Positions 33,460 through 35,039 of a stretch of 35,555 nucleotides of DNA are shown here, piece after piece. The stretch comes from Alphaproteobacteria bacterium GWC2_42_16 (GTDB lineage Bacteria > Pseudomonadota > Alphaproteobacteria > UBA9655). The position numbers and the translations under genes are program-made. The stretch spans positions 1-35,555 of the forward strand of contig MEMA01000006.1 in the NCBI GenBank assembly GCA_001767835.1. The letters are read 5' to 3'. Numbering within the stretch: the stretch's first letter is position 1; each line of letters starts with the position of its first letter. The notes beneath the pieces are model-generated. The model made no database searches. It was not told the DNA's origin and saw only the letters and a list, made by a program, of their open reading frames with translations.

Positions 33460-33840
33460 TTAATGATCTTCCTTATGAATAAATGTTGCCCCAGGGAACG
33501 CCTCCATAACCGCTTTTACAAGAGGAGCTTCTAAAATTAACTGACGACGGTCCTCAAGAACTTGCTTTGCCTTTTCATGGAGTGTAGGTTGACCGATTTC
33601 ATCAGAAATTGCAATCGTCCATAAATCTCCCAGCTTTGTTTTTAGTAGATCTTGTATTTGCTTTGGTAGCGTTTTTGGGGCCTTTTCAGAAAGGCGAAAC
33701 GTGATATGAGGAGGAGAAAACTCAACTAAATGAACATCGTGCAAAAGGTGAGCCTCAAGCATCCCCTCACGTTGACATCCCACCCAATCCACGAAATCTT
33801 CAAAAGAGGGAAAAGAAGGTCTTGACTCAGTTAAGACTTT
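33460..33840 (-). CDS. dnaX: DnaX tau-type C-terminal domain, -1 frame
   Basis: The frame reads KVLTESRPSFPSFEDFVDWV... from the A9 tract to a stop at 33460 (126 codons). Sequence such as LKTKLGDLWTIAISDEIGQPTL resembles the C-terminal domain of tau, which contacts the polymerase alpha subunit. A -1 slip on the A-tract would fuse it to the main frame to make 526 aa. A GTG at 33792 is unlikely to be an independent start. Confidence 0.8.
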   Translation of the reverse strand, partial: KVLTESRPSFPSFEDFVDWVGCQREGMLEAHLLHDVHLVEFSPPHITFRLSEKAPKTLPKQIQDLLKTKLGDLWTIAISDEIGQPTLHEKAKQVLEDRRQLILEAPLVKAVMEAFPGATFIHKEDH

Positions 33841-35039
33841 TTTTTTAAGAAAGTCCCTTCAAAGGCGCCTTCTAAAAGTTCGTTCAAAGACGGGAGAGGC
33901 GCAAGATGGGTCAGACGAATCACAGTAACCTCAAGGGCCTTCTGCGGGGAGGGGGCTCCCTTCATTTCTTCAAATCCTTTCAAAAGAATTTGCCAAACCC
34001 GCGTCAGGGTAGGAATGGAAAGAGATTGGGCAAGTTCGAGCCCATTCTGTCGTTTTTCAGCGGTGATGGTCATATTTTCTGCCAGGTCAGGGCTAATCTT
34101 AAGGCATTGAATCCAATGGGTTAAATCCAAAAGTTCCTCAAGAATTCGTGCTCCTTCAGCCCCCTCTCGATAAAGGAACCGTAATTTCTCAAGGGCTTCT
34201 TTAACCTTTCCTTCCATCATACTATGGAAAAGCTCTAAAAGGGCTCCTTGATCAGAGAGGCCCAACATTTCGCGGACTTTCTGTGTTGTGATATGGGAGG
34301 ACCCATAGGTAATGGCTTGATCCAGCAAAGAGAGACCGTCACGCACAGATCCTTCTGCAGCTTTCGCTATTAATTTTAAGGCATCCTCTTCATATTCAAC
34401 TTTTTCCCTCTCACACAAGACTTTGAAGTAGTCCCTTATCGTCGCGCTCTTAATGCGCTTGAGATCAAAGCGCACACAGCGAGATAAAATTGTTGCGGGA
34501 ACCTTATGAATTTCAGTTGTGGCAAAGATGAATTTCACATGAGGTGGCGGTTCTTCAAGAGTTTTTAAAAGCGCATTAAAGGCGCTTTTCGAAAGCATAT
34601 GGACTTCATCAATAATGTAGATCTTATACCGTGCCGAAATGGCTTTATATTGAGAGGCTTCAATAATTTCTCGAATATCATCAACGCCTGTTCGACTGGC
34701 CGCATCGATTTCAATAACGTCAAGAGAACGGTCTTGGGCAATGGACGTACACGACCCGCAAACACCACAAGGTTCAGGTGTTGGACCATTTTCGCAATTC
34801 AAGGAGCGGGCAATGATGCGAGCAGTTGTTGTTTTACCTGTACCGCGAATTCCTGTTAAAATAAAGGCATGGCCTAGGCGATTTCCTTCAAGACCCCTTC
34901 TTAAGGTCTCAACAAGAAAATCTTGCCCTATAACTTCATCGAGTTTGGACGGCCGATACTTACGTGCCAAAACCCGATATCCTTCAAAAGGAGAAGCTCT
35001 GGGATCCTCAGACACAAGTTTAAGAACTGATGTTGTCAC
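33831..35039 (-). CDS. dnaX: DNA polymerase III subunit gamma/tau (DnaX), 0-frame gamma-like product
   Basis: A 402-aa clamp-loader ATPase. Walker A is GIRGTGKTTTAR, the zinc site CENGPTPEPCGVCGSC follows, then Walker B IYIIDEVHMLS and the sensor segment FIFATTEIHKVPATILSRC. The frame stops directly after an A9 tract (LKKKS-stop), leaving it without the tau-type C-terminus, which continues in the -1 frame. It starts 20 bases downstream of the 4.5S RNA. Confidence 0.96.
   Translation of the reverse strand: MTTSVLKLVSEDPRASPFEGYRVLARKYRPSKLDEVIGQDFLVETLRRGLEGNRLGHAFILTGIRGTGKTTTARIIARSLNCENGPTPEPCGVCGSCTSIAQDRSLDVIEIDAASRTGVDDIREIIEASQYKAISARYKIYIIDEVHMLSKSAFNALLKTLEEPPPHVKFIFATTEIHKVPATILSRCVRFDLKRIKSATIRDYFKVLCEREKVEYEEDALKLIAKAAEGSVRDGLSLLDQAITYGSSHITTQKVREMLGLSDQGALLELFHSMMEGKVKEALEKLRFLYREGAEGARILEELLDLTHWIQCLKISPDLAENMTITAEKRQNGLELAQSLSIPTLTRVWQILLKGFEEMKGAPSPQKALEVTVIRLTHLAPLPSLNELLEGAFEGTFLKKKS
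33838..33846 (-). promoter_or_regulatory. A9 slippery tract in dnaX
   Basis: On the coding strand nine A are followed by G, containing the heptamer AAAAAAG known as the slip site in E. coli dnaX. Immediately downstream GTCTT and AAGAC could form a short stem with a 9-base loop. Frameshift on the ribosome, slippage by RNA polymerase (as in Thermus dnaX) or a true mutation all fit. Confidence 0.6.

What the first reader, a model, noticed from the sequence alone, without database searches (positions are those of the whole stretch)
33460..35039. dnaX split at an A9 tract: -1 frameshift needed to make tau
The 0 frame ends two codons after the A9 (LKKKS-stop, 402 aa); the -1 frame continues as a tau-type C-terminus (526 aa in all). 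In E. coli the 0 frame gives tau and the shift gives gamma; here the arrangement is reversed. Flanking sequence is otherwise intact, so recoding or transcriptional slippage is more likely than decay of an essential gene.
Basis: partly seen in the sequence, partly recalled or inferred. Interest (0 to 1): 0.65.

Follow-up and report, generated by a model that had tools for sequence, protein, structure and literature searches.

The report
Recoded DNA-polymerase clamp-loader gene, order-wide
In every sampled member of one group of alphaproteobacteria that carries it, the gene for the clamp-loader part of the replication machine is cut in two reading frames at a run of nine or ten A's, so the short protein is the default and the long one can be made only when RNA polymerase (or the ribosome) slips on that run.

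Summary
In detail: dnaX (minus strand) has a 402-aa zero frame that stops just after an A9 tract, and a −1 frame that continues for 125 aa as a tau-type C-terminus (PF12362, E 2e-30). It is not an error or decay. All 15 dnaX-bearing genomes of the order carry A9 (7) or A10 (8) at the same place. The 5' codon changes with tract length so that the downstream part is always −1, and a zero-frame stop follows (14/15 at the identical codon). The −1 extension is under purifying selection (omega 0.13–0.28). The sampled neighbouring order has single-frame genes. Slippage by RNA polymerase is the better mechanism: the tract is longer than the ribosomal heptamer requires, runs of nine or more are depleted fivefold in the genome's ORFs, and no ribosomal stimulators are conserved. 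Ribosomal −1 shifting on the conserved A_AAA_AAG is not excluded. The "reversed" organisation is already published (Antonov 2013: 17 genes, 12 genera). This is a new, order-wide member of that kind, in a class where Caulobacter makes gamma by ClpXP proteolysis.

The parts
33831..35039 (-). dnaX zero frame: gamma-type product, 402 aa, domains I-III (AAA+, lid, clamp-loader domain III)
   Evidence: Pfam PF13177, PF22608, PF12169; NCBIfam NF006585/TIGR02397; matches E. coli tau/gamma solved chains at E about 1e-92
33873..34292 (-). domain III (PF12169), ending 13 residues before the zero-frame stop
   Evidence: residues 250-389 of 402
33838..33846 (-). A9 tract, the slip site
   Evidence: A9 or A10 in 15/15 dnaX of the order
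33837..33843 (-). A_AAA_AAG heptamer in the phase used by E. coli dnaX, at the 3' end of the tract
   Evidence: conserved 15/15
33831..33833 (-). zero-frame stop TAA (gamma terminator)
   Evidence: a stop at this codon in 14/15 (TAA, TAG or TGA), two codons further in G002
33460..33837 (-). -1 frame: tau-specific C-terminal extension, 125 aa plus stop
   Evidence: omega 0.13-0.28
33478..33810 (-). PF12362/DUF3646, 'DNA polymerase III gamma and tau subunits C terminal'
   Evidence: E 2.3e-30; NF006585 positions 473-589, E 3.5e-24
33124..33444 (-). downstream ybaB/ebfC-type ORF, just after the tau stop (named from its sequence, not tested against a family library)
   Evidence: the tau stop overlaps or abuts its start in relatives G001 and G015
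35064..35159 (-). upstream small SRP RNA gene
   Evidence: Rfam RF00169, 54.7 bits

Best explanation
This is an intact dnaX gene with programmed recoding and reversed polarity. Reading of the templated A9 gives gamma (402 aa, domains I-III) by default. Tau (526 aa, with the C-terminal domain expected to bind the polymerase) is made only from messages in which RNA polymerase has added one A (or 1+3n, or lost two) on the tract. Messages with other lengths enter the third frame and also stop within a few codons (3 residues in G000), giving gamma-like products. The gamma:tau ratio is therefore set by the slippage spectrum. Shown: the frames, their conservation, selection on both parts, the domain content, and avoidance of long runs in the genome's ORFs. 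Inferred: that the shift happens, that transcription rather than the ribosome does most of it, and the roles of the two products.
For: (1) All 15 dnaX-bearing genomes of the order have the split; the zero frame is 398-429 aa against about 520-790 aa in most other alphaproteobacteria. (2) A9 with an NNA codon or A10 with GAA, always giving ..A AAA AAA AAG, then a stop: the 3' part is -1 in 15/15 and never in phase. (3) The -1 extension is PF12362 and evolves at omega 0.13-0.28. (4) The codon before KKK changes amino acid (L, V, S, E) yet ends in A in 15/15, with third-position A at 18-30% in these genes; rough joint probability 6e-5 from G000 codon usage. The ribosomal heptamer does not need this base. 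(5) In 313 kb of the genome, ORF runs of 9 or more A or T are 4 against about 20 expected from synonymous shuffling, while runs of 6-8 are near or above expectation, the signature of a slippage threshold at nine used in PMC1088944. (6) No conserved Shine-Dalgarno-like or 3' hairpin stimulator. (7) Precedents: A9 slippage in Thermus dnaX, and tau-by-recoding dnaX with A10 tracts (PMC3711429, PMC5009743).
Against: No RNA or protein data. The shift direction is conserved in 15/15 and the E. coli heptamer A_AAA_AAG is invariant; PMC3711429 takes a constant direction as a sign of ribosomal shifting (here a single origin explains it as well). Depletion of long runs could also reflect replication slippage. 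G008 has lost most of PF12362 yet keeps the A10 and the -1 arrangement. A fold comparison of the C-terminal part was inconclusive.
Confidence: 0.72

Rival explanations
1. Tau is made by -1 ribosomal frameshifting on A_AAA_AAG, as in E. coli but with reversed polarity; transcription is faithful.
For: Heptamer and phase invariant in 15/15, direction constant. A few members have Shine-Dalgarno-like stretches upstream (G000, G007, G009, G005, G008: within the best 8-19% of windows of their gene).
Against: Stimulators are not conserved: most members have neither a good SD-like site nor a downstream hairpin, and G000 has weak downstream structure for its gene in the shorter windows. Conservation of A extends beyond the heptamer.
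Confidence: 0.2
2. Sequencing or assembly error, or recent decay of the gene.
For: Homopolymers are error-prone; the genomes are multi-contig drafts.
Against: Same -1 relation in 15 independent assemblies with two tract lengths compensated by the 5' codon; conserved stop; omega well below 1 on both sides.
Confidence: 0.02
3. Phase-variable contingency tract: tau is switched by replication slippage between cells.
For: Tracts of 9-10 A can mutate.
Against: 0 of 15 genomes are in the tau-on phase; random phase would give about a third, if tips were independent.
Confidence: 0.03
4. The -1 part is translated separately from an internal start as a free C-terminal protein.
For: An ORF with GTG start exists (33792..33460).
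Against: No start codon with a Shine-Dalgarno-like site is conserved in the extension; the -1 frame is open right up to the tract in 15/15.
Confidence: 0.03

Closest known systems
Two-ORF dnaX with tau made by recoding (Antonov et al. 2013, PMC3711429; discussed in Atkins et al. 2016, PMC5009743)
   Same: Zero frame gives the short product, -1 shift at a run of 7-10 A (nine genes with A10) gives tau; transcriptional realignment proposed.
   Different: The species named there in the text I could read are Chlorobi; the main text does not mention alphaproteobacteria (the supplement listing the rest was not readable here). Here a whole alphaproteobacterial order is fixed for it, with compensated A9/A10.
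Thermus thermophilus dnaX (Larsen 2000, as described in PMC1088944)
   Same: A9 tract in the gene, slippage by RNA polymerase yields both subunits, stops in the other frames.
   Different: Polarity: in Thermus templated A9 gives tau and slipped messages give gamma.
E. coli dnaX -1 programmed ribosomal frameshift
   Same: Same A_AAA_AAG heptamer in the same phase; same two products.
   Different: Polarity reversed; tract longer; SD-like and hairpin stimulators not conserved.
Caulobacter DnaX processing by ClpXP (PMC5422525)
   Same: Same class; short and long DnaX forms both present.
   Different: There gamma comes from proteolysis of tau; here gamma is encoded directly.
Blochmannia dnaX frameshift in a homopolymer (PMC3017870)
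   Same: Split dnaX whose tau may be rescued by transcriptional slippage.
   Different: There it lies inside the tau-specific region and may reflect genome erosion; here it is at the gamma/tau boundary and conserved.

Membership tests
dnaX (DNA polymerase III gamma/tau) | AAA+ module, lid and domain III of DnaX | tested here: met
   PF13177, PF22608, PF12169; TIGR02397 449.5 bits, cutoff 250
dnaX (DNA polymerase III gamma/tau) | tau-specific C-terminal domain | tested here: met
   PF12362 105.6 bits, cutoff 30.2, in the -1 frame
Two-ORF dnaX with tau by recoding (PMC3711429) | zero frame ends after domain III, tau part in the -1 frame, poly-A at the junction | tested here: met
   15/15
Two-ORF dnaX with tau by recoding (PMC3711429) | both products made | not testable with these tools
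   needs proteomics or immunoblot
Programmed transcriptional realignment | homopolymer of 9 or more conserved beyond the need of the ribosome, in a genome that avoids such runs | tested here: met
Programmed transcriptional realignment | mRNA of heterogeneous tract length | not testable with these tools
   needs cDNA sequencing
E. coli-type -1 ribosomal frameshift | slippery heptamer in the right phase | tested here: met
   A_AAA_AAG
E. coli-type -1 ribosomal frameshift | SD-like element upstream and stem-loop downstream, conserved | tested here: not met
   variable among members, mostly within the gene's background

The most novel reading that the evidence does not exclude
An entire alphaproteobacterial order has replaced the single-frame tau gene of its relatives (in Caulobacter, gamma is cut from tau by ClpXP) with a gene-encoded default gamma, and makes tau only through RNA-polymerase slippage on a tract kept at nine or ten A, so that replisome composition depends on transcription fidelity. 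Other alphaproteobacteria evolved the Thermus-polarity A-tract separately.
Probability: 0.55. Interest if true: 0.6.

Novelty: new member of a known kind. Interest (0 to 1): 0.48.

Why it matters
Tau tethers polymerases to the clamp loader (established knowledge), so here an essential part of the replisome would hang on a recoding event in every generation. Order-wide fixation with compensated tract lengths makes it one of the cleaner evolutionary cases for productive slippage. Within one class of bacteria the same two-product problem then appears to be solved in at least three ways: proteolysis, slippage giving gamma, and slippage giving tau. That makes the question of why cells need gamma comparatively testable.

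Tried and rejected
Sequencing error or decay: rejected by 15/15 relatives and by omega. Phase variation: rejected by the constant phase. Internal initiation: no conserved start. Conserved ribosomal stimulators: not found. A hairpin just 5' of the tract, as in the Roseiflexus IS (PMC5009743), is suggestive in some members (G000, G003, G007, G002, G015) but absent in others (G014, G016); I treat it as unproven. Structure of the -1 domain: a single-sequence model was poor; the alignment model (pLDDT 72, pTM 0.40) gave no significant PDB match (tau domain V 2aya at E 0.38), so the assignment rests on Pfam. Short dnaX frames outside the order (G082, G123, G140, G214) ran off contig ends or, for G214, the stretch held. 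The organism could not be named with the tools allowed.

Full report
Observation. On the minus strand the window holds dnaX between an upstream SRP RNA gene (35159-35064) and downstream ybaB/ebfC-type and recR-type ORFs (these two named from sequence only). The zero frame starts at GTG 35039, encodes 402 aa and ends ...TTC TTA AAA AAA AAG TCT TAA; the A9 occupies 33846-33838. The -1 frame is open from the tract to TAA at 33462-33460, adding 125 aa, 526 in all. Its refuter is not: adding one A (A10) or removing two (A7) joins the frames, whereas A8 leads to TGA after a few codons.

What the two frames encode. The zero-frame product has all of DnaX domains I-III: PF13177, PF22608 and PF12169, the last ending at residue 389 of 402. 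It aligns with the solved E. coli tau/gamma chains. The -1 extension is PF12362, 'DNA polymerase III gamma and tau subunits C terminal', E 2.3e-30, and matches positions 473-589 of the gamma/tau equivalog NF006585. The stop therefore sits at the gamma/tau boundary.

Relatives. The held order has 17 genomes in one family; 15 carry dnaX, and the two without it are 63% and 82% complete. In all 15 the zero frame is 398-429 aa, while other alphaproteobacteria have about 520-790 aa in most cases. Of the short frames among the other alphaproteobacteria listed, those checked ran off a contig end or the stretch held or were SAR11-type genes with a shortened C-terminus (L064, L082). The order of G035, which contains family f20 (the nearest group in the DnaX tree), has single-frame dnaX in 38 of its 40 dnaX-bearing genomes (516-606 aa); G408 (446 aa) and G421 (gene broken over two contigs) were not checked further. 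Only the best 150 of the class-wide matches (365 genomes) were listed, so rarer cases elsewhere are not excluded.

Anatomy across the order. Seven genomes have A9 (with TTA, CTA, GTA or TCA before the Lys codons) and eight have A10 (with GAA). Length and 5' codon change together, so that every gene reads ..A AAA AAA AAG in the zero frame. A stop (TAA, TAG or TGA) follows one codon later in 14 of 15 and three codons later in G002. The tau part is always -1 and never in phase. The third frame also closes soon (3-11 residues, 30 in G001). The A10 version plus its flank (AAAAAAAAAAGYCYTRA) occurs exactly once, in dnaX, in each of seven genomes, and its reversed control never. The tau stop overlaps or abuts the next gene's start in G001 and G015.

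Selection. The -1 extension evolves at omega 0.13-0.28 in the 13 pairs examined, against 0.04-0.11 for the gamma part, which implies that tau is made and needed. One oddity: G008 has lost most of PF12362 (64 aa left) but keeps the A10 and the arrangement.

Which machine slips? (a) The ribosomal heptamer A_AAA_AAG needs six A and a G. The tracts hold nine or ten. The codon before the three Lys codons has switched among Leu, Val, Ser and Glu yet ends in A in 15/15, with third-position A at 18-30% in these genes. With G000 codon usage and one draw per independent state the joint probability is about 6e-5; this is rough, since lineage independence is assumed from the tree, where several forks are unresolved. 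(b) In 313 kb sampled from G000, ORFs hold A6-A8 and T6-T8 runs near or above the synonymous-shuffle expectation (T8 20 against 27), but runs of nine or more number 4 against about 20 (Poisson 1e-5). This is the kind of pattern that PMC1088944 uses to infer a slippage threshold, although replication slippage could contribute, as that paper says. (c) Neither an SD-like upstream element nor a downstream hairpin is conserved. (d) Against: the heptamer and direction are invariant. I conclude that transcriptional slippage is the main route (about 0.7) with ribosomal shifting alone at about 0.2; the two may add up. No RNA or protein evidence is available here.

Context. Six other alphaproteobacterial dnaX loci have an A8-A10 run just past domain III but in Thermus polarity, with the zero frame giving tau: L029 and L116 (A10, one genus), L059, L081, L102 (A9), L097 (A8). 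They fall in separate parts of the DnaX tree (deep forks weak), so the tract seems to have arisen several times, and the order-wide reversed form once. Caulobacter, also an alphaproteobacterium, makes gamma by ClpXP processing of tau (PMC5422525).

Literature. The reversed organisation was reported in 2013 (PMC3711429: 17 genes in 12 genera, nine with A10; Chlorobi named) and reviewed in 2016 (PMC5009743). I found no paper reporting it for alphaproteobacteria, within an open-access library and without access to that paper's supplement. The finding is therefore real and well supported, a new order-wide member of a known kind.

Noticed in passing
window 7728-8470, + strand, A9 at 8151-8159: A second coding A9: a 150-aa helix-turn-helix ORF (PF13518) ends six codons after the tract, and the -1 frame stays open for about 105 aa. 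It may be another slippage fusion or a chance overlap; no homologue in 58 related genomes.
   Followed up: partly
L029, L116 (G036, G167); L059; L081; L102; L097: Other alphaproteobacterial dnaX genes carry an A8-A10 tract just after domain III with the zero frame giving tau, i.e. Thermus polarity, apparently of several origins.
   Followed up: partly
L014 (G008), -1 extension 2655-2846: A small (1.2 Mb) genome of the genus keeps the A10 slip site but has only the last part of the tau C-terminal domain (64 aa), much like the short SAR11 DnaX (L064, L082), which also keep a final ...FPGT... stretch.
   Followed up: partly
L117 (G249) and L118 (G151): the genome search reported one in-frame TAG inside the dnaX match in both genomes; not checked whether it lies upstream of the true start.
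   Followed up: no
window 33847-33876, - strand; L005, L009 just 5' of the tract: A possible hairpin immediately upstream of the A tract in several members (for example GGGGCT..AGCCCT in G003, GGGGAG..CTCCCT in G002), recalling the nascent-RNA stem-loop that stimulates slippage in the Roseiflexus IS; absent in others.
   Followed up: partly
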